Assembly (NCBI GenBank): GCA_007693555.1
Contig: REDJ01000232.1
Span: 1-64,000, forward strand
Source: Bacteroidota bacterium
GTDB lineage: Bacteria; Bacteroidota; Bacteroidia; Bacteroidales; UBA7960
Reading direction: 5' to 3'
DNA: 64,000 nt
Below, one piece after another: positions 1 to 29,977 of this stretch. The first letter of the stretch is position 1. Every line of letters begins with the position of its first letter. Position numbers and translations under genes: made by a program. The notes under the pieces were generated by a model, which worked only from the letters and a program-made list of their open reading frames with translations, ran no database searches and was not told where the DNA came from.

Positions 1-1022
1 ATATAAACTGTGCCGCTATTAAGGCTTACAAGTTCATAGTTGAATTGGATCTGGATGAGATGTAGTATGGTCAGGTTAGCTTCATTATCAAACCCGCTTT
101 GAACTTCAAAGTCCTCCAGTGGAAGAAAAACCTGGTGCCATTGAGTACCAATGTCGAAAGTATGGGTGCTTCGACCGTTTACATCTACATCGTCGCGAAG
201 CAAAACCAGTGCATCTTCAATAGGTTCTTCAGCTTTAACGTTTATCACGAAATAATTATAAGAAGAAACATCAATGAAATCGGGGAAGGCCCACATTCTA
301 TAGCCAGTAAAGGTATTATCTTCACTCACGGTATATTCAAGTTTTATTGCAGCACTGCCATCAATTCCACCATCGGGCAAATCAGTTGCAATAGTTTGGC
401 TGTTAATGACTTCTCTGAATCCACCTACGTTTGTGAACTCATCCTCAAAATCACACCACATAAAATCAATATCAGCAAAAACGGGGTCATCACCATTTCC
501 ATCCGGAGCATTTCCCACCCTTATATTGTCAAAATAAATAATAATGTCTTCATCATGCTCAACTGTTTCCGGGAAGTCAGGGAAGAAAGTTATAACTTCA
601 AAAAGACCGTCCTCATCAGAAAAGTCAAACACAAGAGTTTCCCACTCATTAACTTTTGTCTGGGGAAACAAACTGGGTACTTCAACATCATCAGCTCCGT
701 CGGGTTCTAATTTGAAAACAACTGGACTTATGACCGGCTTCCACACATCCACATAAATATACTTATATTCAGTTAAGTCAAGGGGTTCAGGTAATCTTGA
801 AAAGAAACCTGCCCATGGGTCGCCATCAGCACCACGTCTGAATTCTACAACATAGTTGCTGGTATTCCCAACAGGATCGGGGTTGGGTACAACATGCATA
901 TACCCTTGAGCTCCTGCTGCAAACCAGTTCAGCTCAATGTGTTCATAGTCTTCTACCATTTGAGACCATGCGTATCCTGAGAAAATCAGGATGAAAGTTA
1001 ACAAAAAAGTAAATTTTTTCAT
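1..1022 (-). CDS. Secreted two-domain jelly-roll (CBM-like) protein, 3' end cut by window edge
   Basis: The reading frame starts with ATG at 1022 (MKKFTFLLTF...) and stays open to the window edge, so at least 340 residues are present and the C-terminus is missing. Residues 1-21 are a Sec signal peptide. Two beta-rich domains follow. The first, about 22-170, ends in IIIYFDNIRVG. The second, from about 185, has the motifs DFEDEFTNVGGF, MWAFPDFIDV, KAEEPIEDA and GTVY at the edge. The second domain is the same as the one in the 9281-10114 protein and at the C-terminus of the 21863-25366 protein. Jelly-roll domains of this kind often bind carbohydrate; binding is inference. By analogy with its relatives a T9SS sorting domain may lie beyond the edge. 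It is the most distal visible gene of the minus-strand glucan locus, 259 bases after the metallophosphoesterase gene. Confidence 0.8.
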   Translation of the reverse strand, partial: MKKFTFLLTFILIFSGYAWSQMVEDYEHIELNWFAAGAQGYMHVVPNPDPVGNTSNYVVEFRRGADGDPWAGFFSRLPEPLDLTEYKYIYVDVWKPVISPVVFKLEPDGADDVEVPSLFPQTKVNEWETLVFDFSDEDGLFEVITFFPDFPETVEHDEDIIIYFDNIRVGNAPDGNGDDPVFADIDFMWCDFEDEFTNVGGFREVINSQTIATDLPDGGIDGSAAIKLEYTVSEDNTFTGYRMWAFPDFIDVSSYNYFVINVKAEEPIEDALVLLRDDVDVNGRSTHTFDIGTQWHQVFLPLEDFEVQSGFDNEANLTILHLIQIQFNYELVSLNSGTVY

Positions 1023-1281
1023 AGGTTTTAATTTTTTAGGTTGATGAATAGATTAATTAATTGAATTATAGTATAAAGATAAGAGAAACTTTTTTGAATG
1101 CATAGGTATTTGATCATATTAAAAGATGAATAAATTATTTAATCTTATCAAAACATTTATTATTAAAAGCATCAAAAATGCCATATATTAAGTTATTGAA
1201 AATCTATGTATTATGGTTTTCATTGAGTATTCAAAAAATGTCTTTGTAATCTGATTCAAAAAACACACAAAAAGTTTTTTT

Positions 1282-2892
1282 CTAAGGCTTCACCCAAAGT
1301 ATCTTTTTCCCTTCATGCTCCCACCAGCGATCTTTCGATTTAATATGAATAATGTGCATGCCTGGTTCGAGCTTTTCGGTGATCTCTGCCTGCCAAAGCT
1401 TATAAGAATTTGCCGAGCCTCTCATTTCAAGTCCGGGAAAATCTTCAAAACGTTCTCTTATGGCATTTTCATGCTCCAGCATTTCTCTTCTTAAAGGGTC
1501 CTGGGATATTATTCTTTGCATTGGTATCCAGGGGCCATTATCACCTACGCTCATAAATACTTCTGCATCGGGCATGGCATTAAAGATATTGGCAGTAATA
1601 ACAAGGCCAGGAGTATTTTCACTTTCAATTTTATCCTGTACATGAATATGCATTTGAAAGTCAACACTTCTGCGCGAAGATTGCCAGTGTAGCTTAGCCT
1701 GATTATCAGCAATTTTCAGAATACCGTAACCTGCGGGAGTGCCGTCACTCATAACTGCATGGGGAATACCATATTCATCGGCAAAGCCACGCCACCATGC
1801 ACCACATACGGCTCCTACACTTACCATATGATGAGGATTTTGGGGAGAGAAACCAAAGTCTTCATCCAGGAAACGATGATAATGCCGATGCCAGTGGGCT
1901 CCCAGTGATAAAACATTGGTATGCGAAGAAAGCAACTCAGCGAGACGGTTGCGCTGCTCCATGTTCCATCCCCGGTCGTCCCATGGGATGTGCATAAGTA
2001 TGATAAGCAGTTTGTCATTGTCTAAGCGAGCTAATTCATTCTCAAGATAGATCATGTGGTTTTCGCTCACTTCTGGCCGGTAGTATCTGTTATCACCATC
2101 AATAATAAATCGAATGTTGTCCATTACAATAAAATGGGCAGGGCCATACTCAAAGGAGTAATATGACGGGCCATAATGTTTGAAGTATTTGCCACGGGCA
2201 GCAATGTTGTCATCTGCGGTGAAATCCAGATCATGGTTTCCGATAAGGTGTCTCCATGGCACCCCAAGTTTGGAAATGATCTGATTCAGGGGCTCAAAAA
2301 GGTCAAGATTATCAAAAACAAGATCACCCAGAGTTATGCCAAATGCAGCATCATAACCGATGAGTTCATCCACAGCATCCCTGGTAAGATAATGCAATTC
2401 CTTTTCATTTCGCGGCTGGGTATCGGCAAATACTATCACTTCAAATTCATCAGGTTCTTCAACTGGGTACATTGGAAAATCTGCCGATTCGGGCAGTGGA
2501 GCTGTGGCTGCAAGACCTGTGTATTTTGCCCCGGTAGCTCCTTGCGGAAAATTTTTGTAGTAAAACCTTGGGATTTGCAGGTTATCTGCAGCAATATTCC
2601 AGTTACGGGGTTTAATAACAAAAACAAATGAATTATCCAGCAATTCCAAACGATAACTTCCCCCCTGATCTGTCAGAACAATATCCCTGCCATTGGATAC
2701 TGCAATACCCTCAAGAGGAATGTCTACAGCAGGATTATAGGTGCCGGTTTTTTCCTTATCATGAAACACGATGCCTGTAATTTCCCTGGTATTATTTTCA
2801 GCTTGCTGCCCATACAACAAGGAATTTGCCCAAAGCAAAAACAGTATTATTGAAATAAAATATTTAAAAGATTGAAAAAGTGAATTATTCAT
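1282..2892 (-). CDS. Calcineurin-like metallophosphoesterase, exported
   Basis: This 536-residue protein has an N-terminal signal/anchor segment (about 10-28) and an Ig-like N-terminal domain (about 38-120). A calcineurin-type phosphoesterase core follows: FADTQ at 156-160, GDLVFD from 189, GNHD at 218-221, LMHIPWDD and GAHWHRHYH. A beta-rich C-terminal domain closes it. This matches the metallophosphoesterase family with extra N- and C-terminal domains common in Bacteroidota. The first metal motif reads D-T-Q rather than D-x-H. Such enzymes hydrolyse phosphomonoesters or phosphodiesters; the substrate is unknown. It sits 73 bases downstream of a GH144 gene on the same strand, so a role in removing phospho-substituents from the glucan is attractive but is inference. 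Confidence 0.85.
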   Translation of the reverse strand: MNNSLFQSFKYFISIILFLLWANSLLYGQQAENNTREITGIVFHDKEKTGTYNPAVDIPLEGIAVSNGRDIVLTDQGGSYRLELLDNSFVFVIKPRNWNIAADNLQIPRFYYKNFPQGATGAKYTGLAATAPLPESADFPMYPVEEPDEFEVIVFADTQPRNEKELHYLTRDAVDELIGYDAAFGITLGDLVFDNLDLFEPLNQIISKLGVPWRHLIGNHDLDFTADDNIAARGKYFKHYGPSYYSFEYGPAHFIVMDNIRFIIDGDNRYYRPEVSENHMIYLENELARLDNDKLLIILMHIPWDDRGWNMEQRNRLAELLSSHTNVLSLGAHWHRHYHRFLDEDFGFSPQNPHHMVSVGAVCGAWWRGFADEYGIPHAVMSDGTPAGYGILKIADNQAKLHWQSSRRSVDFQMHIHVQDKIESENTPGLVITANIFNAMPDAEVFMSVGDNGPWIPMQRIISQDPLRREMLEHENAIRERFEDFPGLEMRGSANSYKLWQAEITEKLEPGMHIIHIKSKDRWWEHEGKKILWVKP

Positions 2893-2965
2893 ACCGTTGT
2901 TTTTTCGCTAAAAATAATGCAAAGCATGTTATAAAAAGAGATGAACAGATTAATAAATAATTAAT

Positions 2966-4297
2966 TTAAAATGAAATAAAACCTAGTTTTCTCAGGCCAT
3001 CTGACACTTCAGGGTTTTTCATAAACAAATCCCATAAAAGCCCGCTACGGTGGTTTTCTATCATAACCACAATTGGCCCCTGGTCGATGGCAAGATATCT
3101 TTGGGGAAACCAGTTTTCCGATATACTGAAAGCATCATAAAATCCATATTTTCCCCATAATCTGTCTCCCAGCTCTTCGTAAAAATACCGCATAACCTGC
3201 ATTGAATATTCAGGAGTATATGGCATAGATGAAAGAGCCGCTGTAGGTGTAATCACTCCCCTGTCATTCACAGGACTGTGTGAAGCATAACCTGTCGGAG
3301 AATAGCTTGATGTCAATCCCCAGCTGTATTCATGGTAACCCTCAAATCCAAGGGGGTTTTCAATACAATAGGCCCGGTTAATCAGGGTATGATTGACATT
3401 GTGCTCCCAATAATTTGCATATTGGTCTTCAAGGTTTCTTGGGTCAAGACCCAGAAAAGAATAATGAGCCCAAAAAAGCGGACCACCATATTCTCCACCC
3501 CGGTTGTGCTTTAAAGTAAGTGTATACCCATATTGTGAGGTATGGGTTTTTATTTCGCCATCTCTTGCCCAGCCAAAGTGGTAGGCTGATGCAGGTATGG
3601 GATGAGTAGGAGATGAGGCAGCCAGTATATATGTAATCAAACATTCATTGTAACCTCTTATTTGATGATTCATTCGCCATTCATGGTTGGGCGACCAATG
3701 CCAGTAAAGAACATCTTCATTGTCGCGCAAATGCCAGTCCCATTGCACTTCTCTCCAAAGCTCATCAATTCGGGCGGCGAGTTTTTTTTCATGACTATCG
3801 CCCTGAAGAAGATATTGTTTTGCGGTAAGAAGACCTTGAATCAACAGAGAAGTTTCTACAACATCAGAGCCATCATCATACCTGCTGAAAGGACTAACTT
3901 TTCCGGTTTCGCCATCAAGCCAGTGTGGCCATACTCCATGATACCGGTCTGCCGTGATCAAAAAATCAACAATCTGACTCAATCGATTTACGCCTTCCTC
4001 TCGGGTAATGAAATTTCTTTCAATTCCGGTAACAATAGCCATAATGCCAAAGCCCGAACCTCCTGTAGTTACAATATGTTTATCATTTCTCGGATAAATG
4101 CCATCAACATGATATCGCTCACGTGCCATTCCCGAATTGGGCTCTGCACCGTCCCAGAAATACTGAAATGTATGGTATTGAACCAGTTCAAGTAATTCTT
4201 CGTCAGACAGTTTTAAACCATCATAATAGTCTTTTGGTGCAGAGCTGCTAAGGAGAAGTACTGAAATACATATAATTAATATACGAAATATATACAT
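2966..4297 (-). CDS. GH144-type endo-beta-1,2-glucanase (glucoamylase-fold domain)
   Basis: The 443-residue protein has a signal peptide (1-20, no clear lipobox) and a single alpha-barrel domain of the Pfam glycoamylase type. Recognisable blocks are TGGSGFGIMAI, ADRYHGVWPHW, YDDGSDVVET (140-149), RGYNECL (E218), FFxAHYSFLGLDPR-like FWAHYSFLGLDPR, and GPIVVMIENHRSGLLW. D141, D145 and E218 match in spacing the acidic residues I recall as essential in the Chitinophaga pinensis GH144 enzyme (D135, D139, E211). GH144 enzymes cut linear beta-1,2-glucan to sophorooligosaccharides. Database names such as glucoamylase are misleading. It follows susD after 175 bases that contain a long palindrome. It is closely similar to the 25434-26813 protein. 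Periplasmic or surface location is likely. Confidence 0.86.
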   Translation of the reverse strand: MYIFRILIICISVLLLSSSAPKDYYDGLKLSDEELLELVQYHTFQYFWDGAEPNSGMARERYHVDGIYPRNDKHIVTTGGSGFGIMAIVTGIERNFITREEGVNRLSQIVDFLITADRYHGVWPHWLDGETGKVSPFSRYDDGSDVVETSLLIQGLLTAKQYLLQGDSHEKKLAARIDELWREVQWDWHLRDNEDVLYWHWSPNHEWRMNHQIRGYNECLITYILAASSPTHPIPASAYHFGWARDGEIKTHTSQYGYTLTLKHNRGGEYGGPLFWAHYSFLGLDPRNLEDQYANYWEHNVNHTLINRAYCIENPLGFEGYHEYSWGLTSSYSPTGYASHSPVNDRGVITPTAALSSMPYTPEYSMQVMRYFYEELGDRLWGKYGFYDAFSISENWFPQRYLAIDQGPIVVMIENHRSGLLWDLFMKNPEVSDGLRKLGFISF

Positions 4298-4454: not shown

Positions 4455-4472
4455 TGTTCTTGCATCATCTTA

Positions 4473-6026
4473 TTAATTCGGAAACAAACCAGAAACCGGT
4501 GGTTCAGCCAATCCGGGTTGCAGGTCGATTTGGACAGTAGGGATCGGGAAAAACTCATGCTCACCAGGAACAAAGTTTGGTCCGAGTTCTTCTGTTCTGT
4601 TAAGTCTTACAAGGTCAAAGAATCTGTCAGCACCCCATTCAAATTCCAGTTCAGCGGCTCGTTCATCCAGTAAATCATCGATAGTTGCACCGGAAATGGG
4701 TGGCATACCGGCACGGTCTCTAACTTCATTGATAAAACTATCGCCGGCACCGGCACCGTTGAGATGTATCAATGCTTCAGCATGAAGCAAAAGGGTTTCG
4801 GCATAGCGGAAAATTCTTACATTATTCCAGCCACCATAACGGAATCTACCGGGAGTTTGCTGGTTAAATGGAAGGTAATTTTTAAACCAGAAAGCTTCGG
4901 CAGCACCCCTTCCTTCGTTGTTATATCTGTCAAGCAATGCCTGAAGGTCAGCCGGAATTGCGCCAATGGAGTCTCCGTCCAGGGTTGCAGTATTTGGATA
5001 GATGATACTTGTTTCATAACGGATACCTTCGCCTCTGGCTTGCATCAGATCTATGTATTTCTGGGCAGGCATGGAAAAACCCCATCCACTGTTAAAAGAA
5101 CCTCCATCATATCTGGTACCGCCTGCCTGTTTTATACCATGTGCTACATAGTACTGGTCAATCCAGGTTGCATTTCCGGTAGCAGTGCCAAAATCGGTAT
5201 GATTCATTTCAAAAATATTCTCGGAAGAAAATTCTCCGGGCTTTTTGAATAAATTATAAAAATCAGGGAATAGTGAAAATACACCACTATTAATGATTTC
5301 ACCTGAAGCGTCGAGCATAGTTTCATAATCCTGAACATCAGCAGCAGCTTTGGCTAATAGCATGTAAGCTGCCCACTTTGTAACACCACCCTTTCTGGGA
5401 AGCATGGCCGGATGCTGAGAAGGCAGGTCATTAACTATTTCATTGAGCTCGCGGAAAATATAATCATATGCTTCAAGACGCGGTGCTCTTCTTAAAGCTG
5501 CTGCCACAGTACTGCGGTCGTAGTAGGGAATATCACCATAAATTCTGGCCATCCTCCAGTAAGCCAATGCCCTGAAAAACCTTACTTCGGCTTTGTATTG
5601 CCTTACAAGTTCCTGGTCGGAGGCATGTTCTCCGAAAAGTGCAAGTTCTTCAAGGGCGGCATCGGCATCTCTTATCAGACCAAAATGAGCAACCCATAGG
5701 TTGTTAACAAACCAGGCAGCTCTTAGTGATTCATATTTGAAATCCTGAATATCTTCCATAACGGGCTGGTCATTGGCATGAGCCCCTTTAAAGATAAAAT
5801 CACTTCTGAAATTCAACATGCATTGGTTGGCCCAATGATGCAGATTATTGGCGTTTGCTCTTGCGTATATACCTGAAACAGGTTCATACATTCTGCTTTC
5901 ATCTGTATAGTCAACTTCCTCAAGCGGTATCTGACCTTCAACAGCTTTGTCAAGAAAATCCTCGCAACTGCTGAACAAAAAAACCAGGAGCATAGGTACG
6001 ATTATAAATATTCGATTATTTTTCAT
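4473..6026 (-). CDS. susD: SusD-like glycan-binding outer membrane lipoprotein
   Basis: The chosen start (6026) gives MKNNRIFIIVPMLLVFLFSSC, a lipoprotein signal with Cys21; an upstream in-frame ATG at 6119 would bury this signal behind 31 residues and is rejected. The protein (517 residues) is a RagB/SusD family alpha-helical TPR-like lipoprotein: it has the family N-terminus (SSCEDFLDKAVEGQIPLEEV), the QELVRQYKAEVRFFRALAYW helix and a C-terminal RAAELEFEWGADRFFDLVRLN block, with the family FxPIPxxQID ending (FFPIPTVQIDLQPG). SusD proteins cap the SusC barrel and bind oligosaccharide at the cell surface. It lies 101 bases after susC on the same strand, the usual order. Its ligand is inferred from the neighbouring enzymes to be beta-1,2-gluco-oligosaccharide. 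Confidence 0.95.
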   Translation of the reverse strand: MKNNRIFIIVPMLLVFLFSSCEDFLDKAVEGQIPLEEVDYTDESRMYEPVSGIYARANANNLHHWANQCMLNFRSDFIFKGAHANDQPVMEDIQDFKYESLRAAWFVNNLWVAHFGLIRDADAALEELALFGEHASDQELVRQYKAEVRFFRALAYWRMARIYGDIPYYDRSTVAAALRRAPRLEAYDYIFRELNEIVNDLPSQHPAMLPRKGGVTKWAAYMLLAKAAADVQDYETMLDASGEIINSGVFSLFPDFYNLFKKPGEFSSENIFEMNHTDFGTATGNATWIDQYYVAHGIKQAGGTRYDGGSFNSGWGFSMPAQKYIDLMQARGEGIRYETSIIYPNTATLDGDSIGAIPADLQALLDRYNNEGRGAAEAFWFKNYLPFNQQTPGRFRYGGWNNVRIFRYAETLLLHAEALIHLNGAGAGDSFINEVRDRAGMPPISGATIDDLLDERAAELEFEWGADRFFDLVRLNRTEELGPNFVPGEHEFFPIPTVQIDLQPGLAEPPVSGLFPN

Positions 6027-6127
6027 ATCATTAAAATTTGAAAGTTTGGTGATCATATTACCTGATAATTTAAACTTAACATAAATAATTTGCTTAATAA
6101 AATCGGGTCTCATGATCATTTATTTTT

Positions 6128-9100
6128 TTAATAAGTAATGTTAACACCAAGAGTAAAGCTAGTAGGTATAGGATACACCCCTGCAGCTTCACCCTGTCCT
6201 GTTACTTCTGGCGTAAAGCCATTGAATTTAAAGAAAGTAAGCGGATTTTGGGCGGCAAACCTTACCCTGATTGTAGAGCCTGATTGGCTTCCGGGCAAAA
6301 TATCACGGAAGGTATAACCAAGAGTTATGTTTTGAATTCTGAAAAATGACCCATCTTCAACAAGGAAAGAATTTAGTGGGTTTAAGTTCCAGGAATTTAC
6401 CATGCCTTTGGCTGATGGATAGGAATTGGTAGATCCTTCTCCTGTCCATCTGTTCTCATAAAGGTCAAGATCAAAATTGTAATCAGCATGCCATGCTCTG
6501 TTTCCCCTTAAGCGGTTAATAAGTTTATTGCCCGAAACACCATATAAAGAAACAAAAAAGTCCCAGTTTCTGTATTCAAGGCTTATTTGTCCGCCATAGG
6601 TAAAATCAGGAATATTGGCCCCAAGGTATTGACGGTCATTCTCATCAATAATACCATCACCATTTAAATCTTCAAATTTTAAGAATCCGGGTTCTACCTG
6701 CGTATGTACACTTGTATCGAGATGTTCTTCAATTTCTTCCCAGTTTTGATACACACCAATTACCTTGTACCCATAAAAAGAGTAAAGCGGATGTCCTACC
6801 TCAGTTCTTCTGCGAAATTCGGCAGATCCTGCATCAATGTAAGGTTCTCCTCCAAGGCTAAGTACTTCATTTCTTAGTGTACCCAGGTTTGCTCTCACGT
6901 TATATCTGAGCCCACCTGTCTCATCCTGCCAGTTAATAGAAAATTCCATACCGGTATTGAGGATTTCTCCAACATTTCGGATCAAACCACCTGCACCCAT
7001 AAGGTTGCTGGTCCAGATTGCTGCATTTTTTGTGACACGGTAAAACCAGTCAATTTCTGTATAAAGCCTGCTGTCAAAAGTAGAGAGCTCAATTCCGGCA
7101 TTGGTTTCTTCAGTCAACTCCCATTCTAATTCATTGAAGAAAACGCTGGAAACATATCCGGGTATGATTTGGTCATTTCCGAAAATATATGAATTATCAA
7201 TCCCGGTAAAAATTTCCCGGGTACCTGATTCGCGTGGCACAGCATTGTTACCAAGTTGACCCCAGCTTGCTCTGAGCTTAACAAAGTCAAAAAGCTCCTG
7301 GTTATCCATAAAAGATTCCTCACTTACGACCCAACCAACCCCAACTGAGGGAAAGTAGCCCCATGTTTGTGAGTACTTATCGGTACCATCTGCCCTGAAT
7401 GTTGTATTCAGCAAGTACCTGTGATTGAAGTTGTACATAAGACGGCCAAAATATGAAACACCTCTTTCAGCAAACCCACCGTCGAATACATTGAAGCTGG
7501 CAGGATCCGGGTCTTCTGAATTTCCAAAATATAAATATTCGGGAATAAGACCCGGAACATCACGTGCACTGCCTCCAACATGTCTTGCATCAACCTGTCG
7601 GGTAGAAAAACCTCCCAAGACAGTAAAATTATGGTTGCCAATATTATCTTTATAGGTTAGGGTGTGATCAAGGTGCAGAGCACTGAAGTAATTATACCTT
7701 TTTGACAGACTTGAGTTTTCATTTCTCAGTTTATCATCAACAAAATAAACAGGAACATAAACCCTGTTGTTATTGTTTCTGATTTCATGGCTGAACTGGG
7801 TTCTGAAAACCAATCTGTCATCTCCAGTAAGTTTCAGATTGGCATGTGCATTATACATAAGATTGATTCCACTGGTAAAATTAAAATTGCCTGTCATGAA
7901 ATCAAGCATAGCAACCGGATTATTTACAGGTCCTACCTGATAACCGGCCTGAATGACCCCTGCATATTCACCTGTTTCTTCCCTGACCGGTGTAATGGGT
8001 ACCGCACTATACATGGCACCCCATACAGAGCCTTCATCACGGGCGTGTGTATGGTTCAGGATTATGTTAGTACCTAAATCGAGGAAATTATAGGGATTAA
8101 AGTTAACACTTGCCTTCAGGTTGATTCGTTCATAGGTATGGTCTGATTGAAGTAGTCCTTCCTGGCCCATATAACTTGCACCCACGTGGTAGGTTGTAAG
8201 GTCGGTGCCACCCCTGAAGGTTAGTGAATGATTCATAACCCTACCCACTCCCAATAATTCATTATACCAGTCTGTATCTGTGGCGGGAATAACGTATTGC
8301 TCACCGTTCAGTGTAAAATCCCGTCCACCCCAAATATTGATTGAAGGTAAAAGACGTGAGTAAGAGTCTTGTTCTATCAACAGTGTTGAGTATTGCTCCC
8401 CATTGGTCATCTGCATGATGTTGCTGGTTGAATTATAGCCAACATAGCCATCATATTCAATAATTATCCCCTCGCCTCTGCGTCCTTGTCTTGTAGTAAC
8501 CATTATTACCCCTCCGGCTGCCCTGACACCATAAATAGAAGCTGCAGAAGCATCCTTCAAAATAGCAATAGACTCTATGTCATTAGCGCTTAGCCAGTTA
8601 ATATTGTCGTAAAACATTCCATCCACAACAAATAAGGGCTGCGCACCCTGCATTGATGCAATACCACGTATATTGATCTCAGGGTTGGAACCGGGGCCTC
8701 CCCTGTTGATGATTTGCACACCAGGGGCTGCTCCTTGCAATGCGGATGCCGGGTTGGATGTAATGTTTCTGACAATATCGGCTCCGCTTACAACCGGGAT
8801 AGGCGCAGTTAAATCAGCCGAACGGGCTGTTCCATAGCCGATTACAACAACCTCATCAATGCCGATAGCTGCCATTTCCAATACAACATTTATTATGGTT
8901 CTGCCTTCTACCGGAACTTCTTTTGTTTGCATTCCAATAAAAGAAAAAACCAGGGTTGCATCTTCGGGAACATTACGCAGGGAATATTGCCCATTCATGT
9001 CAGAAGTGGTGCCTGCAGTAGTTCCCTTAATAATCACCGTAACTCCCGGAATTGTAGTTCCGTCATCGGCACTGGTAATAGTACCGGTCACAGAAATCTG

Positions 9101-9160
9101 GGATAACGCTGTATTTGCCAGAAAGGGCAGATACATTAAAATAATTAGTAGTTTTTTCAT
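6128..9160 (-). CDS. susC: SusC/RagA-family TonB-dependent oligosaccharide transporter
   Basis: The 1010-residue protein has a signal peptide (1-20), a carboxypeptidase-D-regulatory-like domain (about 22-98: ISVTGTITSADDGTTIPGVTV), the SusC family segment DEVVVIGYGTARSADLT, and a plug domain with QPLFVVDGMFYD, ILKDASAASIYG and AAGGVIMVTT. A long beta-barrel ends in an aromatic residue (LGVNITY). It imports oligosaccharides across the outer membrane with energy from TonB-ExbBD; an ExbB/ExbD operon is present at 48153-50378. It is followed by susD. Upstream, at 9235-9269, is a stable stem-loop just after the preceding gene. No signal-transduction extension (STN domain) is visible at the N-terminus, so it is a plain transporter and not a sigma-factor-linked receptor. 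Confidence 0.96.
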   Translation of the reverse strand: MKKLLIILMYLPFLANTALSQISVTGTITSADDGTTIPGVTVIIKGTTAGTTSDMNGQYSLRNVPEDATLVFSFIGMQTKEVPVEGRTIINVVLEMAAIGIDEVVVIGYGTARSADLTAPIPVVSGADIVRNITSNPASALQGAAPGVQIINRGGPGSNPEINIRGIASMQGAQPLFVVDGMFYDNINWLSANDIESIAILKDASAASIYGVRAAGGVIMVTTRQGRRGEGIIIEYDGYVGYNSTSNIMQMTNGEQYSTLLIEQDSYSRLLPSINIWGGRDFTLNGEQYVIPATDTDWYNELLGVGRVMNHSLTFRGGTDLTTYHVGASYMGQEGLLQSDHTYERINLKASVNFNPYNFLDLGTNIILNHTHARDEGSVWGAMYSAVPITPVREETGEYAGVIQAGYQVGPVNNPVAMLDFMTGNFNFTSGINLMYNAHANLKLTGDDRLVFRTQFSHEIRNNNNRVYVPVYFVDDKLRNENSSLSKRYNYFSALHLDHTLTYKDNIGNHNFTVLGGFSTRQVDARHVGGSARDVPGLIPEYLYFGNSEDPDPASFNVFDGGFAERGVSYFGRLMYNFNHRYLLNTTFRADGTDKYSQTWGYFPSVGVGWVVSEESFMDNQELFDFVKLRASWGQLGNNAVPRESGTREIFTGIDNSYIFGNDQIIPGYVSSVFFNELEWELTEETNAGIELSTFDSRLYTEIDWFYRVTKNAAIWTSNLMGAGGLIRNVGEILNTGMEFSINWQDETGGLRYNVRANLGTLRNEVLSLGGEPYIDAGSAEFRRRTEVGHPLYSFYGYKVIGVYQNWEEIEEHLDTSVHTQVEPGFLKFEDLNGDGIIDENDRQYLGANIPDFTYGGQISLEYRNWDFFVSLYGVSGNKLINRLRGNRAWHADYNFDLDLYENRWTGEGSTNSYPSAKGMVNSWNLNPLNSFLVEDGSFFRIQNITLGYTFRDILPGSQSGSTIRVRFAAQNPLTFFKFNGFTPEVTGQGEAAGVYPIPTSFTLGVNITY

Positions 9161-21862: not shown

Positions 21863-24800
21863 TCATAGAACCGAGAGCTTTTTTACCATGGTGCCCAGGT
21901 AATTTTGAATTCTGACCATGTAAATTCCGCTTTTCAGGCCGGATATGTCCAATATAGTCTGTTCCTGTTGGGATTTTTTGGTTAACAGTTCTTTTCCGTT
22001 TATGTCGAAAATGGAGATTGTAACCTTCTCCGGTGAAAAAAGAGTAACTTTTTGAGAAGCCGGGTTAGGAAACATCTGGAAAGACAGTGAGTGAGAAAGA
22101 TTTGTTTCAGAAGAAACCTGACTTATAAAACCAACCAGGTCTATATAAACTTTATTTTGCGATGGCACAGTAGAACCTTTTTCAAATGTGATATCTATTC
22201 TCTGGATTTTGCTCATGTCGGGCAAATTGTTTGCCCAATCCATGGTTAAAAAATCTTCTACAGGTAAGTTTACTCCCTGCCAATCTGTATCTATATCAAT
22301 ATAAGTATAGGATGCCCCGTCGGTTCCTTGTATACCATCTGTATCAAACATTTGAATCCTGACATCTGAGATGGGTTCATCAGCTTTGATATATATTACC
22401 ATTTCATCATGCCCGCTGATATTTGCCGAAGGGAATGCCCACAACCAGTAGGATGTAAAGTCATTTACCACGTCCAGGTCATATTCAAGCTGCAGTACAG
22501 TTCCTCCAAATTCTCCCTGATTGCTCAGATCGGTGGCGGTGAGCCCCTGTGCCCAGCCAGGAATTTCCCGAAATCCTTCCACATTGGTAAAACCCGGAAT
22601 TGAAAAATCACTGTAAATAAAATAATCACCCGGATCATTTCCCCATCCGCTCAATGAAACATTAATGTCATCTCCAATTTGTAGTGTTGCATTTTTCAAA
22701 CCAGGACTATCAGGTGAAAATGAAACCAGCACAGTTTCACTTTCCAGCAAACCAAGTTCAATAGTTTCTGATGGAGTCTGAAGAATAAATTGAGAAGCAT
22801 CCTCGCCGGTTATATTTATATCATCAGGGTTAATAATCCACTTGGCTTTGCCCCTGTTATATAATGTAAACCCCACCGGATCAGTTGTGCTATTCAGGGG
22901 ATGTGCTCCAAAATCATTTGAGTCAGGAGAAACAAAAGGAACAGGTTCATTAGGCGGTTCCTCGAGCAATATATCATCAAAATCCCACGATACTATATTA
23001 TTGGTAGCACCATCAAAAACCCATGCAAGCCTGAAACTTTCAGCGCCTAAACCATGATTCTCGCTGTCGATAATTCCTAAAAACTCTGTTGAAGCAATGA
23101 AATCCGGATCTACCCATTCATTAATGATATATTCCTGGCCATCGGCAATGGCAATAACCGAAAGTGTATAAATGCCGGGTTGTTGAAAATTACGAACCCT
23201 GTATTTAAATGAAAGGAGCAATGTATCCAGGTCATGGGTAATTATTTCAGGTGTTTTAAGATAGAACCGACCTGTTTTTTCAGGCTCCCACCAGAATACC
23301 ATTTCCGGGGGAGTGCCTCCGGCATTGCTGAGCATAAAAGTCTCCCAGTTTCGGGTATCGCTCACCCAGCCTCTAGGTACACCTCCCTGAACCTGGGCAG
23401 AGAAATCTTCGAGCCATGGTAGCTCTGTAATGGTGGGATCAAAGCTTTTACCTGAAAGCGGTATGTTTTTTTCAGCAATATTTAAAACAGCTGACATTTC
23501 ACCTACGTTTTGGGGAGTAAAAGCAACATAAACAAATGCCGTGTCAGAATGACCGAGTATAACACTTTCACTAAGATTGTATAAGGTAAATGCTTCATTG
23601 TCCGGGCCTGTAATCTCAATGTCAGCAGGTTGAATGTTTATAAATCCCCCACCGATATTGGTTAATGAAAACTTTACAGAATCAGATTGAAAGTTAACCT
23701 GCAATTCTCCAAAATTAAATTCACCAGGTGTAATTGCAAGAGCGGGTAAGGCATTTACCTCAATATCATCAATTGCCCAATAATTTATGTCATCTTCCTG
23801 TCCCGAAAAGTGCCATGCGAGAAAAAACATACTTGCTCCCACTCCGTGATTTTCACTGTAGATTGTAAATGTATTTTCTTCGGAGGTAAAATTGCCGGGG
23901 TTGTCCCATTGCGCTACAATATATTGTTGCTCATCTGCAATGGAAAGCAGTTTTAATGAATAGTTTTCATACTCAGGATTTTCTACCATGGAATGTTTAA
24001 AAGTCACAGTTAAACTGTCGAGACCCTGGGTTTGCAAAGGTGGTGTTCTTACCATAGCATAGGATTCATCCTCTGATAACCCTCCAAAAAACAACTCTGG
24101 TGATTGTCCCCCTGCAAAATCTGTATCGGTTATTTGCCAGTCTCCTTCCATTGCCATCCATCCGAATGGTAGATCGTCATCAGTAATATCCTGAAAATCC
24201 TCTGTCCATGGAAACTCTGTTATGGTGGCATCAAATGCGGTTCCGGAGATGTCTGCACTGTCAACTGCAAAATTGAGAACTACTTCCTTTAACCCTGTAT
24301 TATGTGGCTTAAAAATAACTTCTGTTACAATACTGTCGCCAGGCAATAATTCTATAATTTGATCAGGCTTAAGCAATTCGAAATGTGTATCATCAGCTTT
24401 TAACTTAAAATGAGCAAGTACGCCAAAATGATCCGATTCCATGTCTTCATCTTCATGTACATCGTTAAGAACAATTTCTGCAGAAAGAGGCAGTATGTCA
24501 TCAAGGCTTGCCTTATTGAAAAAAACATAGTCAATTCTTCTCATCTGATGGCCCACTCTGTGATTCAACGTTGCATGTTCCGGGTCCAGGTGATTTTCAT
24601 GAAAAATCGGATATACATCTTTGAAATCGTCATACATAAGTTGCATTTCTTCCCAGTCGGGATTTGCATTAAAGTCGCCGGTAATAAAAATATAACTTCC
24701 GTTGTTGGTTTCTTCTATAAAATCAAGAAAATCATTGATTTGTATAATGCGGATATGGCTATCCAGCATTCTATGATGCAGGTGAGTATTGTACACATCA

Positions 24801-25366
24801 ACAGTGTTTCCGTATACATCCAGTTTCACATGAATTGCGGTCCTGAATCTGTTAAGAGGTTCCAGTGCACGGTAATTTGTTTCCAGAATGGGATACCTTG
24901 AAACAATAGCATTACCATAACGTTGAACACTGCTTTCATCATCTACAGAATCAAAATAATAATAAAACCCCAGTGAATCTGCAATTTGCATAGCCTGATT
25001 ATCCAGGTTTGCTCTTTGAATGATTTCCTGAAACCCGATAATATCAACATCCATTTCACGAAGTCCATCAAGGATATATGCAAATCTGCCGGGCCAGTTT
25101 CCATCATCAGCTTCAATGTTGTAGGTCATTACAGACAAATTTGTTGTTAGGGCATTCTTCCCGTTTAGACTAATATCTTCAGGGTTGATGATCACCGGGC
25201 TTTCTGAATCATTTAAGAAAACAAAGGGTTTAGCTGGAGAAGAAGTGCCCGTTTGCTGTTGTGGAAATTCAAATTCGGATGGATTGATAAACGATTGAGA
25301 CCTTAGCAATCCACCGTTATATAAAACATTACTAATAAGGAGTATCAGGAGTATACTTTTTATCAT
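21863..25366 (-). CDS. T9SS-secreted multidomain EEP-family phosphoesterase/nuclease-like protein
   Basis: The 1167-residue exported protein has a signal peptide (about 1-24). An endonuclease/exonuclease/phosphatase domain (about 76-322) carries all family signatures: N83 (MTYNI), E114 (GFQEI), H195 (NTHLHH), GDFNANP from 230, D279 (RIDYVF) and SDH 311-313. Three HYDIN-like (choice-of-anchor D) beta-sandwiches are present (27-75 plus 326-385; about 541-645; about 808-908), with the EEP domain inserted in the first. Choice-of-anchor J-type domains lie at about 386-540 and 649-803, a jelly roll at about 917-1080 and a T9SS sorting domain at about 1095-1167. EEP enzymes hydrolyse phosphodiesters or phosphomonoesters. 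Location beside GH144 genes suggests it works on phospho-decorated glucan; nuclease activity is the alternative. Confidence 0.85.
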   Translation of the reverse strand: MIKSILLILLISNVLYNGGLLRSQSFINPSEFEFPQQQTGTSSPAKPFVFLNDSESPVIINPEDISLNGKNALTTNLSVMTYNIEADDGNWPGRFAYILDGLREMDVDIIGFQEIIQRANLDNQAMQIADSLGFYYYFDSVDDESSVQRYGNAIVSRYPILETNYRALEPLNRFRTAIHVKLDVYGNTVDVYNTHLHHRMLDSHIRIIQINDFLDFIEETNNGSYIFITGDFNANPDWEEMQLMYDDFKDVYPIFHENHLDPEHATLNHRVGHQMRRIDYVFFNKASLDDILPLSAEIVLNDVHEDEDMESDHFGVLAHFKLKADDTHFELLKPDQIIELLPGDSIVTEVIFKPHNTGLKEVVLNFAVDSADISGTAFDATITEFPWTEDFQDITDDDLPFGWMAMEGDWQITDTDFAGGQSPELFFGGLSEDESYAMVRTPPLQTQGLDSLTVTFKHSMVENPEYENYSLKLLSIADEQQYIVAQWDNPGNFTSEENTFTIYSENHGVGASMFFLAWHFSGQEDDINYWAIDDIEVNALPALAITPGEFNFGELQVNFQSDSVKFSLTNIGGGFINIQPADIEITGPDNEAFTLYNLSESVILGHSDTAFVYVAFTPQNVGEMSAVLNIAEKNIPLSGKSFDPTITELPWLEDFSAQVQGGVPRGWVSDTRNWETFMLSNAGGTPPEMVFWWEPEKTGRFYLKTPEIITHDLDTLLLSFKYRVRNFQQPGIYTLSVIAIADGQEYIINEWVDPDFIASTEFLGIIDSENHGLGAESFRLAWVFDGATNNIVSWDFDDILLEEPPNEPVPFVSPDSNDFGAHPLNSTTDPVGFTLYNRGKAKWIINPDDINITGEDASQFILQTPSETIELGLLESETVLVSFSPDSPGLKNATLQIGDDINVSLSGWGNDPGDYFIYSDFSIPGFTNVEGFREIPGWAQGLTATDLSNQGEFGGTVLQLEYDLDVVNDFTSYWLWAFPSANISGHDEMVIYIKADEPISDVRIQMFDTDGIQGTDGASYTYIDIDTDWQGVNLPVEDFLTMDWANNLPDMSKIQRIDITFEKGSTVPSQNKVYIDLVGFISQVSSETNLSHSLSFQMFPNPASQKVTLFSPEKVTISIFDINGKELLTKKSQQEQTILDISGLKSGIYMVRIQNYLGTMVKKLSVL

Positions 25367-25433: not shown

Positions 25434-26813
25434 TCATGGTTCTTCATAATAAAAACCCAGTTTTTCCAGTCCATTATGGACATCCTGATTTTTCATAAAA
25501 ACATCCCATAAAAGTCCGCTTCTGTAATTTTCAATCATAACAACAATAGGTCCCTGGTCAATAGCAATGTAACTATCGGCAAACCATCTCTCATCAAAAT
25601 TGAAAGCATCCTTAAAGCCATAAGGCCCCCATAAGTCATTATATAAGTAATAGTAAAATGTACGTAATGCGCTCATGCTTTCTTCAGGAGTGTAGGGCAT
25701 TGAGCTTAGGGCAGCGGTCGGGGTAATGGTTCCATTATCTGTACCTCCGTAATTAAAAGGAGCATGTGCCCGATATCCAAATGGGTCATCGCTTGCTGTC
25801 AGTCCCCAGATAGAATCGCTGTAATGGCAATGATTACCGGGATTAACAATACAGTATTGTCTGTTTATCAAAGTATGATTGCGGTTTTGCAGCCAGTAGT
25901 CGGCATATTGATCATGCAAACCACGGGGATCAAGACCAAGGAAAGAATAGTGTGCAAAAAAGAGGGGCCCGCCAAAATGATATCCGAGGGGCAAGGGCAT
26001 ATAGTAATAATGACTGCCGTTGACCATATTGCCGTTTCTTGCCCAACCCTGGTGATATGCATCGGCTGAAACTGGATATGTAGGCGATGCTGCCGCAAGG
26101 ATGTAAACCATTAATGCTTCGTTCCACCCACTAATACGCATATTCATTTCGAAGCCGAAATTCGGCGACCAATGCCAAAACAATACATTCTGTCCCTGGG
26201 TATAAAACTGCCAGTTGATATCATACCAAAGGGTATCAACAAAGTTACGAAGTGAGTCTTCAAGAGGTGTATCACGATCAAAATACTCACGTGCTGCAAT
26301 GAGACCCTGAACCAGAAATGCAGTTTCTACAAGGTCTCCGCCATCATCTTTAGCACTAAAAGGAATAGTTCTACCTGTAGTACCATTATACCAGTGTGCC
26401 CAGGCGCCATGGTAACGGTCGGCATTGTCAAGAAAATTACATATTTGCAACACCCTGTCAAGTACTTCATCTCTTTGCAGGAAGCCACGCTCTATACCTG
26501 CAATCATGGCCATAATGCCGAATCCGGTGCCACCGGTTGTTATCAGGTTTCCTGAAGTATTCCTTTCGCGAGCCATGCCGGAAACAGGTTCTGCAAAATC
26601 CCAGAAATACTTGAGAGTTTGCTGTTGCACCAGGTCGAGCAATTCATCTTCACTTAAATCTTCTTCAATTACACGAACCAATTCAGGGCATCGGTCAGCA
26701 GGGTCCGTAGTTCCGTTATCAGGAAACTCATCGTCATTGCTACATGATAAAAAAAATATAATAACTAAAAGATACAGGCATGATGCCCTCGATTGAAAGG
26801 GATGGGTTGACAC
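25434..26813 (-). CDS. GH144-type endo-beta-1,2-glucanase lipoprotein
   Basis: The 459-residue protein is read from GTG at 26813, since no ATG lies in frame upstream before a stop, or between this codon and the lipobox. Residues 1-24 form a lipoprotein signal (IIFFLSC, Cys24). The catalytic domain has TTGGTGFGIMAM, ADRYHGAWAHW, KDDGGDLVET (155-164), GWNEALMVYILAA (Glu232) and GPIVVMIENYRSGLLW. D156, D160 and E232 correspond to the acidic triad of characterised GH144 enzymes, with identical spacing between the second Asp and the Glu. It is closely similar to the 2966-4297 protein. It is the first gene of the locus after the regulator and is probably a surface or periplasmic endo-acting enzyme starting glucan breakdown. 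Confidence 0.87.
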   Translation of the reverse strand: MSTHPFQSRASCLYLLVIIFFLSCSNDDEFPDNGTTDPADRCPELVRVIEEDLSEDELLDLVQQQTLKYFWDFAEPVSGMARERNTSGNLITTGGTGFGIMAMIAGIERGFLQRDEVLDRVLQICNFLDNADRYHGAWAHWYNGTTGRTIPFSAKDDGGDLVETAFLVQGLIAAREYFDRDTPLEDSLRNFVDTLWYDINWQFYTQGQNVLFWHWSPNFGFEMNMRISGWNEALMVYILAAASPTYPVSADAYHQGWARNGNMVNGSHYYYMPLPLGYHFGGPLFFAHYSFLGLDPRGLHDQYADYWLQNRNHTLINRQYCIVNPGNHCHYSDSIWGLTASDDPFGYRAHAPFNYGGTDNGTITPTAALSSMPYTPEESMSALRTFYYYLYNDLWGPYGFKDAFNFDERWFADSYIAIDQGPIVVMIENYRSGLLWDVFMKNQDVHNGLEKLGFYYEEP

Positions 26814-27169
26814 GGTGTTTTGGTTTAGTGTTTTGATAAATTATGTTTTCGGGTCTGAAAAAAATCTTTCTAAATCCTTTGTTTTATCCTGTTTATAACA
26901 TCAGTTTTCCAAAACATCTGCTATTGCCAACTAAGTGATGCTTTTTTTACCTAAAGATTATCAAGACAAAGAACGATTGTGTGAAAGAAGCTCTACAGTT
27001 TGGTAAATATAAGAATAACATGCGGTAGAGTCAAATTCCGGCAAGCATATCAATTGCACACATGATTAATATCCCGTCATTTATACCTTAATAATTCTTT
27101 CACATCAGAAATTATAATGTTGACTGACAGTAGTTTAAAATGTTAAAAAGTTACTTTTTTTATGATGGG
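26814..27169. other. Intergenic region between the regulator gene and the glucan operon
   Basis: This 356-base AT-rich stretch lies downstream of the regulator gene and upstream of the first enzyme gene, both on the minus strand. It is the natural place for the operon promoter and a regulator-binding site. I searched it for the Bacteroidota motif TAnnTTTG on the minus strand and found no exact match, and saw no convincing inverted repeat or terminator. No coding potential is evident. Confidence 0.5.
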
Positions 27170-29977
27170 TTAATCATGGTTTTGATGCAGTTCAAACTCC
27201 TGATTGAGTAAAAACTCAAAAAGATTTTCCTCCGGATTAAGGTCAAGTTTCTTTCTCAGACGATGTCTGCTTATTTCTACTCCCCGGATTGAAATGTTGA
27301 GCATTTGGGCGATTTCTTTCGTTGTAAAGTTCATGCGCAGGTAGGAACATAATCTTAAGTCATTTGGAGTAAGTTCCGGATACTTTTCTTTGAGATTTTT
27401 AAAAAAACCCTGTTGCGAAAGTTTAAGATTTTTCATAGCTTTTTCCCATTCTATGCTTTGAGAACCCATACCTTGGTTTATAATACGCTCCATATTTTTT
27501 ATATACTTTACGGGGTATTTTGAAGACTGATCTTTTAGGGCTATGATTTGTTTTCTTAAATCATTTAAAATATTGTCCTTTAGTAAAAGGTGTCTCATGG
27601 TAAGCATGAGTTCATAGCTTTTGTAATCAAGTTCTTTTTCGAGGCTATTTTGCCTCAATTCCATAGCCACGATTTCCTTTTGCCGGCTAACTTCATAACG
27701 GAAAAATTCAAATAAACCCCAAAAAATAGCCAGAAATATGATTCCATAAAAAATCCAGGCTGTAAAGCTAAGATACCATGGACGGCCTATTTCAAAGGGA
27801 ATTTGCACCAGGGTATTGTTTCCATCTCTGATTTCTACGGTATATTTTCCAAAACTTAGATTAAGGTATGTAAAATGATTCCCCTGTGTAGTTTGCCAGG
27901 ATTTGTCAAGCTCTTTGATTCGGTATTCATAGGTTTGCTGAATCCTTCCAAAATCAGAGGGATTGGAAAAATAGACATTAATATTGTTTACATGGGAAGG
28001 TATTTTATTCTCTGGTTTCTGCCTGAAGTAGATTAAAGTATCACGTGAGCAATAAAACATTAACTTCTCCAGAGCCAATCTGGGTTCACGTTGATCCGAT
28101 TGATGCAGAGATAAATTGTAGGCGCTGAATTTCTGAGGATTGGGGATCAACAATGTTTGTTCATCCATTCTAACAGGTTTAATACGACGCTGAGGCAGAT
28201 TGATACTTTTATGTGGAATTTCATATTTCTTTTTAGCTGAGAAATCCATAGCCACTTCAAATAAAGCCAATTTATCTTCTTTTATGAACCAATACTCATT
28301 TCTTTGATAAGGATTAATATGCGATGGATTTTTGAAATCACCAAGGTGTTCAGTAAGTGTATTGAATAGAACTATCTCATTTCTCACAAAATCATATGTG
28401 TAAATACCTATTGGAGTAGTAAATATGACACGGTTATTAATCTTAAAAACTTTGATGTCAAAACTATTGTCGTCAATATCAGGATAATAATTTACTCTTA
28501 TTGTAGAAACAAGATCTTCTGAAAGTTCAATTTTAAATAATCCCTTTTGGTGGTGTGAGGCCCATAAATAACCAAGGTAATCAACCTCAATGTATCTTGT
28601 AGGTTCAGAGAAGTTGTTAATCTTATTGCGAAACTGCCACTGTCCGTTTACACCTTTTTCCAGAATAATTATACCTGTATAAGTTCCTCCCAGTATATAT
28701 TCACCAAAAGGTATATACGACCACCCTCCGGTAACATCGGAAATTTTATTCATACGGCCATCTTTAACCAGGAATGTGCCTTCATTATGCCCGCAGATAA
28801 TTTGATCGTCAATTAATTCCAGAGACCACACCTGACCCTGACTTCCCGGTATAAATTCAAAACTGGGGAAATGATAAATATGGCCTTTTTTTTCAATACC
28901 TGCCCTGAATAATCCGTGATTTGTTCCAATATAAAGAAAATCATGGTACCTAAGCATCGCATATATAGTGCCCATAGCACCATTGCTCAACTTATAATGC
29001 GTGTATGGTGAAAGCAGGTCAATGTAATTTGTGCCCTCATCCATTCCAATCCATAATCCGGAATCTTTATCTTTATAAAGTGACAATACTGTGTTGTTTT
29101 TCAGGCCATTATCAGAATTATATGATCTTTGAACGTCTCCCGATTTATTGGTTATAATGAGGCCGTTGAGAATGCTTCCGAATGCAAAGGTTGTATCACT
29201 TAATTGAACAGCAGCATTACAGGTAAATCTTTTCAAAAAATCCGAAGCTTCTGAAGGGAAATAATTGAATTCAAATCCGTCGTAAATATAAATGCCCTTA
29301 TTGTCGGTACATACCATCCATCTGCTTTCGTCATAGGGTATGATGGCATGAATTTTCGTTTCTGAAAAAATCTCACTCCCAGGAATTTGGATGAATTCAT
29401 TATCCTGAAACCAAAACAAGCCTACTTCGATGATTTGAGCAACAAGTTGCTCTTGTATTTTATGCGAGAAAAGCATGGTATAAGGAGCCTTTACCTTTTT
29501 TACTGTTTCAAAATTATAGATGTAAATGGACGTGAAAGATTGAAAATATACTTTGTCATCTTTCAAATATATCTTCCAGATTTCATCGTTTTTTTCAATA
29601 TCGGTAAAGGAAGTAAGGCTTGTATATTTTAACAGGCCATTCGGGTTGTATTGCCAGTAACCAAATTCCTCAAATGAACCGGTAAAAATCCTACCTGACT
29701 TGTGCGCCTTAACTGAACGCATAGGAAAGTTCTCCTTAAGGGTGTTTTTTTGCCAGCTAATTCCATTATATACAATCAATCCTTCAGAATTGGCAAAATA
29801 GATATATTTTGAATCCGGACATTGCGATATTGCCCAGTTCTGATTTCTTAATTCAAAATCATTTATGAGAAAAGGAACCAATGCAGGGTGTTCACTCCTA
29901 AGTGAATAACCGGTATAAACTATGCTTTTCAGCAGAACAAATACCAGAAGAAACTTTTTAAATACTTTTATTTTCAT
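27170..29977 (-). CDS. Transmembrane one-component regulator: propeller sensor, Y_Y_Y, LuxR HTH
   Basis: The 935-residue protein has a signal/anchor segment (about 8-26) and a large periplasmic part with two-component-regulator propeller-like repeats (for example GLWIGMDEG and FLYIGTNHGLF). A Y_Y_Y domain (about 650-732) leads to one transmembrane helix (734-760). A cytoplasmic coiled coil (about 765-800) and a LuxR-type HTH (about 868-925: LTPNDLRLCSYLRMNFTTKEIAQML ... RLRKKLDLNPEENLF, split here) follow. There is no kinase or receiver domain, so it differs from hybrid two-component systems and should bind glycan outside and DNA inside with one chain. It is the gene just upstream of the glucan operon on the same strand and is its likely activator; this is inference. 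Confidence 0.88.
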   Translation of the reverse strand: MKIKVFKKFLLVFVLLKSIVYTGYSLRSEHPALVPFLINDFELRNQNWAISQCPDSKYIYFANSEGLIVYNGISWQKNTLKENFPMRSVKAHKSGRIFTGSFEEFGYWQYNPNGLLKYTSLTSFTDIEKNDEIWKIYLKDDKVYFQSFTSIYIYNFETVKKVKAPYTMLFSHKIQEQLVAQIIEVGLFWFQDNEFIQIPGSEIFSETKIHAIIPYDESRWMVCTDNKGIYIYDGFEFNYFPSEASDFLKRFTCNAAVQLSDTTFAFGSILNGLIITNKSGDVQRSYNSDNGLKNNTVLSLYKDKDSGLWIGMDEGTNYIDLLSPYTHYKLSNGAMGTIYAMLRYHDFLYIGTNHGLFRAGIEKKGHIYHFPSFEFIPGSQGQVWSLELIDDQIICGHNEGTFLVKDGRMNKISDVTGGWSYIPFGEYILGGTYTGIIILEKGVNGQWQFRNKINNFSEPTRYIEVDYLGYLWASHHQKGLFKIELSEDLVSTIRVNYYPDIDDNSFDIKVFKINNRVIFTTPIGIYTYDFVRNEIVLFNTLTEHLGDFKNPSHINPYQRNEYWFIKEDKLALFEVAMDFSAKKKYEIPHKSINLPQRRIKPVRMDEQTLLIPNPQKFSAYNLSLHQSDQREPRLALEKLMFYCSRDTLIYFRQKPENKIPSHVNNINVYFSNPSDFGRIQQTYEYRIKELDKSWQTTQGNHFTYLNLSFGKYTVEIRDGNNTLVQIPFEIGRPWYLSFTAWIFYGIIFLAIFWGLFEFFRYEVSRQKEIVAMELRQNSLEKELDYKSYELMLTMRHLLLKDNILNDLRKQIIALKDQSSKYPVKYIKNMERIINQGMGSQSIEWEKAMKNLKLSQQGFFKNLKEKYPELTPNDLRLCSYLRMNFTTKEIAQMLNISIRGVEISRHRLRKKLDLNPEENLFEFLLNQEFELHQNHD

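What the first reader, a model, noticed from the sequence alone, without database searches (positions are those of the whole stretch)
1..29977. A large, single-strand locus for beta-1,2-glucan use
Seen: two canonical GH144-type proteins, one divergent relative, GH3, a GH94 of phosphorylase length (1114 residues), GH35, SusCD, GPH symporter and a dedicated regulator, all on one strand with short gaps. Known: GH144 and long GH94 enzymes act on beta-1,2-glucan, and GH3 partners of GH144 prefer sophoro-oligosaccharides. Inference: the locus covers surface cleavage, uptake and cytosolic phosphorolysis of beta-1,2-glucan, and is richer than the small sophorose loci I know of in Bacteroides.
Basis: partly seen in the sequence, partly recalled or inferred. 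Interest (0 to 1): 0.75.

Follow-up and report, generated by a model that had tools for sequence, protein, structure and literature searches.

The report
Gene cluster for eating β-1,2-glucan
An uncultured Bacteroidales-type bacterium carries a gene cluster that very probably breaks down and imports β-1,2-glucan, a sugar polymer made by other bacteria; the core resembles a known cluster, but it also carries a lineage-specific secreted phosphoesterase and carbohydrate-binding proteins whose roles on this sugar are untested.

Summary
A same-strand cluster at 1-29977 encodes three GH144-type β-1,2-glucanases, a GH94 that is a 1,2-β-oligoglucan phosphorylase (SOGP), GH3, GH35, SusC/SusD, a GPH symporter and a regulator. 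The GH35 is not a stray β-galactosidase. It matches the β-1,2-glucosyltransferase IaSGT, keeps that enzyme's catalytic and −1 subsite residues, and lies directly upstream of SOGP in 23 of 23 informative loci elsewhere. β-1,2-glucan use is therefore well supported. The core is known from Ignavibacterium album (GH144, GH94, GH35), so the system is a Bacteroidales variant of a known kind.

EEP_T9 relatives occur in 10 of 47 family genomes, always beside a GH144 gene, and in none of the order's genomes searched outside the family. My extra proposal is that the locus targets phosphate-decorated β-1,2-glucans such as osmoregulated periplasmic glucans. That step is inference. Nothing was assayed, and the locus is cut by the contig end.

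The parts
3..1022 (-). incomplete protein (cut by the contig end) with signal peptide and two CBM11/CBM30-like beta-sandwich domains, one A-type and one B-type; presumed surface glycan-binding protein
   Evidence: sequence; related to the 600-aa A-A-B-T9SS protein between GH3 and SusC in a same-genus genome, L054:9477-11276; no Pfam family at cut-off, CBM30 at E 0.034
1282..2892 (-). secreted calcineurin-like phosphoesterase (MetallophosN, Metallophos, MetallophosC)
   Evidence: Pfam; metal-site motifs DTQ, GD, GNH, MHIP present; relatives over 55% identical beside SusD or the binding protein of the same locus in G153, G318, G323
2966..4297 (-). GH144 endo-beta-1,2-glucanase, CpSGL type
   Evidence: PF10091 8.8e-84; CpSGL 5gzh 3.7e-191 with E142, E211, F268, Y330 conserved
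4473..6119 (-). SusD-like surface lipoprotein; homologues are about 517 aa, so the true start is probably an internal ATG before the lipobox
   Evidence: Pfam and NCBIfam; homologue lengths
6128..9160 (-). SusC/RagA TonB-linked outer-membrane transporter
   Evidence: TIGR04056 757 bits
9281..10114 (-). 277-aa protein: signal peptide, one CBM11/CBM30-like domain, T9SS type A sorting tail; putative surface binding protein
   Evidence: Por_Secre_tail; model pLDDT 79.7, CBM11 at Z 15.4
10231..12462 (-). GH3 beta-glucosidase lipoprotein (BglX-like; also related to sophorose-preferring Lin1840)
12479..15823 (-). [quoted passage not shown]
   Evidence: PF21958, PF21250, PF21270; LpSOGP 5h3z 2.7e-174 with GGDWND motif aligned
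15827..18259 (-). GH35 beta-1,2-glucosyltransferase (IaSGT relative), no signal peptide
   Evidence: 7vkw 2.8e-156; -1 subsite and catalytic residues conserved, +2 subsite residues changed
18284..20314 (-). GPH-family sugar symporter with an inserted coiled-coil-like stretch near the C-terminus; presumed importer of beta-1,2-glucooligosaccharides
   Evidence: PF13347 8.8e-64; syntenic with GH35 and SOGP in other families
20393..21790 (-). GH144 lipoprotein, XcSGL type (the 'divergent relative')
   Evidence: XCC2207 8xul 2.4e-104; E211 and Y330 equivalents invariant, Asp at the E142 position
21863..25366 (-). EEP_T9: T9SS-secreted phosphoesterase of the endonuclease/exonuclease/phosphatase superfamily with a CBM11/CBM30-like domain and sorting tail
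   Evidence: PF03372 3e-21, Por_Secre_tail; catalytic motifs TYN, QE, TH, GDFN, RRIDY, SDH intact; 10/10 relatives beside GH144
25434..26813 (-). GH144 lipoprotein, acidic residues after the lipid cysteine; presumed surface endo-beta-1,2-glucanase
   Evidence: PF10091 1e-77; 4gl3 1.4e-165, CpSGL 9e-144; lipobox
27170..29977 (-). regulator: Reg_prop propeller, Y_Y_Y domain, weak LuxR-type helix-turn-helix, no histidine kinase
   Evidence: helix-turn-helix below cut-off; orthologues beside the locus in other genomes
30077..30940 (-). EEP2: small EEP-superfamily lipoprotein; probably a neighbour, not a core member
   Evidence: PF03372; in several genomes of the family it lies on contigs other than those with GH144, or in a genome without GH144

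Best explanation
The locus is a polysaccharide utilization locus for beta-1,2-glucan made by other bacteria. Surface GH144 enzymes cut the polymer; SusC/SusD, helped by CBM-like surface proteins, import the pieces; periplasmic GH144 and GH3 trim them; the GPH symporter brings short beta-1,2-glucooligosaccharides into the cytosol; SOGP phosphorolyses those of DP 3 or more to glucose 1-phosphate and sophorose; and the GH35 moves glucose from sophorose onto other acceptors, so that sophorose is not a dead end. Shown by sequence: families, catalytic residues, gene order and its conservation. Inferred: substrate in vivo, cell locations, direction of flux, the GH35 role. A further, weaker inference, not covered by the confidence given here (see the section on the most novel reading), is that the two secreted phosphoesterases remove phosphate-linked groups (such as phosphoglycerol) from decorated beta-1,2-glucans before or during cleavage.
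For: Three GH144 enzymes with catalytic residues kept. SOGP by three SOGP-specific Pfam domains and 5h3z. GH35 closest to beta-1,2-glucosyltransferase IaSGT with all seven -1 and catalytic residues kept. GH35 directly upstream of SOGP in 23/23 distinct informative loci, usually with GPH and GH144 next. SOGP needs DP 3 or more (PMC5309861, abstract) and IaSGT prefers sophorose as donor (PMC8861115), which fits the pairing. For the phosphoesterase idea: EEP_T9 relatives in 10 of 20 family genomes with PF10091 and 0 of 27 without (Fisher p 3.6e-5, not corrected for phylogeny), all 10 immediately beside GH144; profile matches to sphingomyelinase-type and TDP2 phosphodiesterases; E. coli OPGs carry phosphoglycerol and phosphoethanolamine (PMC10514313). 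Own genome has no MdoG and no further PF10091 protein, so no sign of its own beta-1,2-glucan synthesis. T9SS present: four PorP-family proteins.
Against: No activity, expression or growth data. The GH3 is generic by sequence. The phosphoesterases could serve another purpose; the metallophosphoesterase has about 50% identical paralogues near other genes, including a sulfatase and a SusC, and orthologous SOGP loci in other families showed no detectable EEP, so phosphate removal is not essential for beta-1,2-glucan use. IaSGT is poor with beta-1,2-glucooligosaccharides as acceptors (PMC8861115), which weakens the sophorose-recycling step unless the changed +2 subsite alters this. The locus is truncated on the left.
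Confidence: 0.88

Rival explanations
1. The locus targets plain, unsubstituted beta-1,2-glucan, and the phosphoesterases are nucleases or phosphate-scavenging enzymes that merely share the operon (phosphate for the phosphorolysis step, or extracellular DNA as food). This rivals only the phosphoesterase part of the best explanation.
For: EEP is a broad superfamily that includes nucleases (NCBIfam exodeoxyribonuclease III weakly matched; TDP2). SOGP consumes phosphate. SOGP loci of other families lack EEP.
Against: EEP_T9 carries the same CBM-like domain as the other secreted proteins of the locus and is always beside GH144, which suggests a carbohydrate target.
Confidence: 0.5
2. The locus recycles the cell's own beta-1,2-glucan rather than foraging.
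For: [quoted passage not shown]
Against: This genome has only the three GH144 hits for PF10091, hence no synthase of that type, and no MdoG. SusC/SusD and T9SS cargo point outward. The genome is about 97% complete, so absence is not certain.
Confidence: 0.05
3. The target is a different or mixed glycan (for example a heteroglycan with beta-1,2-glucose side chains or a sophoroside), with GH35 acting as beta-galactosidase or glucosaminidase.
For: GH35 and GH3 families are mostly other activities; a glucosaminidase model also matches the GH35, far below its cut-off.
Against: GH35 scores 525 bits to IaSGT against about 221 to a glucosaminidase; three endo-acting GH144 and SOGP need several consecutive beta-1,2 links.
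Confidence: 0.05

Closest known systems
Ignavibacterium album beta-1,2-glucan cluster around IALB_1177-1187 (PMC8861115)
   Same: two GH144, a GH94 SOGP homologue, GH35 IaSGT and a predicted TonB-dependent route
   Different: I. album uses an ABC transporter with a sophoro-oligosaccharide-binding protein; here a GPH symporter, SusC/SusD, T9SS binding proteins and phosphoesterases. The paper itself is inconsistent on whether that cluster has a GH3.
Listeria innocua lin1839-1840 cluster (PMC3960220, PMC4757417)
   Same: SOGP plus GH3
   Different: ABC import; no GH144 surface stage, SusC/SusD or GH35 that I know of
Bacteroides thetaiotaomicron and Parabacteroides distasonis GH144 loci (cited in PMC8861115; BDI_3064 = 5z06)
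   Same: GH144 with GH3; the BDI_3064 N-terminal domain has the same fold as the locus's CBM-like domain (Z 11.5)
   Different: no SOGP or IaSGT-type GH35 reported there, to my knowledge
Other Bacteroidales SOGP loci found here (for example L012, L014, L016, L018, L076, L083)
   Same: SusC, SusD, long GH144, XcSGL-type GH144, GPH, GH35, SOGP in the same order
   Different: instead of EEP_T9 they carry an unclassified ~1060-aa protein between the XcSGL-type GH144 and GPH, and LamG-domain proteins

Membership tests
GH144 (SGL clan) | PF10091-type (alpha/alpha)6 domain with close similarity to characterised GH144 enzymes | tested here: met
GH144 (SGL clan) | clan residues E211, F268, Y330 (CpSGL) and acidic residue at E142 | tested here: met
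   all kept in 2966-4297; E211 and Y330 invariant in all three, E142 position E/E/D. F268 in the third is shifted by one column in the MAFFT alignment but a PLF motif is present.
GH144 (SGL clan) | hydrolysis of beta-1,2-glucan | not testable with these tools
   needs enzyme assay
GH94 SOGP (EC 2.4.1.333) | SOGP-specific N-terminal, supersandwich and C-terminal domains; catalytic Asp motif | tested here: met
GH35 beta-1,2-glucosyltransferase (IaSGT) | catalytic and -1 residues Y52, E102, N175, E176, N275, E343, Y378; no signal peptide | tested here: met
GH35 beta-1,2-glucosyltransferase (IaSGT) | acceptor choice (+2 subsite Gln106, Phe391, Tyr392 in IaSGT; not stated to define the enzyme) | tested here: inconclusive
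   these three are Ala, Tyr, Ser in all 18 distinct Bacteroidales sequences (20 rows, two duplicated), so acceptor choice may differ; only an assay can tell
Bacteroidota polysaccharide utilization locus | SusC/SusD pair with linked CAZymes and regulator | tested here: met
EEP superfamily phosphoesterase | PF03372 domain with N, E, H, D-x-N, D, DH motifs | tested here: met
   the structure model failed (pLDDT 36)
CBM11 or CBM30 | family-level sequence similarity | tested here: not met
   CBM30 at E 0.034, below Pfam cut-off; same fold at 15-19% identity
T9SS cargo | C-terminal sorting domain and a T9SS in the genome | tested here: met
   for 9281-10114 and 21863-25366; not visible for the truncated 3-1022

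The most novel reading that the evidence does not exclude
EEP_T9 is a secreted, glycan-binding phosphodiesterase, acting with the calcineurin-like enzyme, that strips phosphate-linked substituents from beta-1,2-glucans such as osmoregulated periplasmic glucans, and its CBM11/CBM30-like module founds a beta-1,2-glucan-binding CBM family. I found no such enzyme or CBM in the papers searched.
Probability: 0.3. Interest if true: 0.62.

Novelty: new variant of a known kind. Interest (0 to 1): 0.42.

Why it matters
β-1,2-glucans are widespread bacterial envelope sugars with roles in osmoregulation, symbiosis and pathogenesis, but how other microbes consume them, above all in their decorated natural forms, is little studied. 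The locus supplies a defined set of candidates: a phosphoesterase tied to GH144, a candidate CBM, and a GH35 subclade with a changed acceptor site that could settle what the β-1,2-glucosyltransferase does for SOGP.

Tried and rejected
1) EEP2 (30077-30940) as a second locus phosphoesterase: rejected as a core member, since relatives in several genomes are on contigs other than those with GH144, and one is in a genome without GH144. 2) AlphaFold model of the EEP domain from two sequences: useless (pLDDT 36); no fold conclusion drawn. 3) The divergent glycoamylase as a member of the new families GH192-194: rejected, best match is XcSGL, a GH144 enzyme. 4) Metallophosphoesterase as strictly locus-specific: rejected; paralogues elsewhere. 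5) Papers on phosphodiesterases acting on OPGs in PULs: none found in the open library, which is not proof of absence.
Full report
The window is the first 64 kb of contig C1 of a 4.2 Mb, 247-contig genome. Related loci carry titles such as 'Bacteroidales bacterium' and 'Sphingobacteriia bacterium S07.Bin180'; the contig of the latter (161,792 bp, L073) matches in length and gene content a genome of the same genus, G155. The organism is therefore an uncultured Bacteroidales-type bacterium.

Observation. From 29977 down to 3, fourteen genes lie on the − strand with gaps of 3-356 bp. Pfam and NCBIfam assign: a Reg_prop/Y_Y_Y regulator, GH144, EEP_T9, GH144, GPH symporter, GH35, GH94, GH3, a T9SS protein, SusC, SusD, GH144, a calcineurin-like phosphoesterase, and a cut-off protein. 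The finding is correct but omits four of these genes.

Enzymes. The product of 2966-4297 matches the characterised endo-β-1,2-glucanase CpSGL at 3.7e-191, with the residues E142, E211, F268 and Y330 kept. That of 25434-26813 matches 4gl3 and CpSGL. The divergent one, 20393-21790, matches XCC2207 (XcSGL) at 2.4e-104, which PMC12102758 shows to be an active GH144 β-1,2-glucanase. The GH94 has all three SOGP-specific domains and matches LpSOGP at 2.7e-174. The GH35 matches IaSGT at 525 bits against 221 for the next group, an exo-β-D-glucosaminidase. IaSGT transfers glucose among β-1,2-glucooligosaccharides and lacks β-galactosidase activity (PMC8861115).

Conservation. I collected SOGP loci without reference to the other genes and GH144 loci from relatives. 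In all 23 distinct loci where the region upstream of SOGP is visible, a GH35 lies directly before it. GPH and XcSGL-type GH144 usually precede it. The −1 subsite and catalytic residues of IaSGT are invariant in 20 aligned GH35 rows (18 distinct), while the three +2 subsite residues Gln106, Phe391 and Tyr392 are uniformly Ala, Tyr and Ser. This suggests the same donor chemistry with a changed acceptor site. SOGP leaves sophorose, which IaSGT prefers as donor; I infer that GH35 feeds sophorose back into longer oligosaccharides. IaSGT itself is poor with such acceptors, so this is a hypothesis.

The proteins at 3-1022 and 9281-10114 and the C-terminal part of 21863-25366 share a β-sandwich domain. 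A model of the 277-aa protein's domain (pLDDT 79.7) matches CBM11 (Z 15.4, rmsd 2.7, 147 residues) and CBM30 (Z 13.8), and the N-terminal domain of the P. distasonis β-1,2-glucanase BDI_3064 (Z 11.5). No Pfam family reaches its cut-off. A shared fold does not prove binding.

EEP_T9 has intact EEP catalytic motifs and a T9SS sorting tail. Its profile finds sphingomyelinase-type and TDP2 phosphodiesterases. A search of 295 genomes of the order found it only in this family (E ≤ 1e-30). Within 47 genomes of the family, ten have it, and in all ten the gene sits immediately beside a GH144 gene; none of the 27 genomes without PF10091 has it (Fisher p 3.6e-5, ignoring phylogeny). EEP2, used as a contrast, is scattered. 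Two genomes of another genus, G318 and G323, have GH3, GH144, EEP_T9, GH144, regulator and metallophosphoesterase-SusD but no GH94, GH35 or GPH on the contigs seen. The window locus thus looks like a join of that module with the GPH-GH35-GH94 module found in other families. This is my reading of gene orders, not a tree-based test.

Why phosphoesterases? Osmoregulated periplasmic glucans of E. coli carry phosphoglycerol, succinate and phosphoethanolamine (PMC10514313); that their backbone is β-1,2-linked is general knowledge. A secreted phosphodiesterase and a phosphatase beside β-1,2-glucanases would suit such a substrate. SOGP loci of other families lack EEP, so it would be a specialisation.

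Confidence. The 0.88 given for the best explanation covers the β-1,2-glucan utilization locus. The GH35 recycling step is less certain (about 0.5) and the phosphate-decoration step is put at 0.3 under the novel case.

Verdict. The core is a Bacteroidales version of a pathway already described for I. album. The new part is a testable hypothesis about decorated β-1,2-glucans and a candidate binding module.

Noticed in passing
L014:11231-14416; also L012, L016, L018, L020, L067, L068, L076, L083, L085, L103, L104: An unclassified ~1060-aa secreted protein (CBM11-like N-terminus, F5/8 domain, C-terminal half weakly like oligosaccharide amylase) sits between the XcSGL-type GH144 and GPH in SOGP loci of other families and of a third genus of this family. 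No Pfam catalytic family; a candidate new glycoside hydrolase family.
   Followed up: partly
[quoted passage not shown]
   Followed up: partly
window 18284-20314: The GPH symporter is 676 aa, with a ~200-residue coiled-coil-like insertion before the last hydrophobic segment; relatives range from about 595 to 690 aa.
   Followed up: no
L055:7099-7932 and L069:5993-6826; L067:9178-10422: LamG-domain lipoproteins recur inside related loci between SusD, GH144 and EEP_T9; absent from the window.
   Followed up: no
L054:16433-18487: In the same-genus genome G155 a GH20 hexosaminidase-like gene takes the place after SusD where the window has GH144 and the metallophosphoesterase.
   Followed up: no
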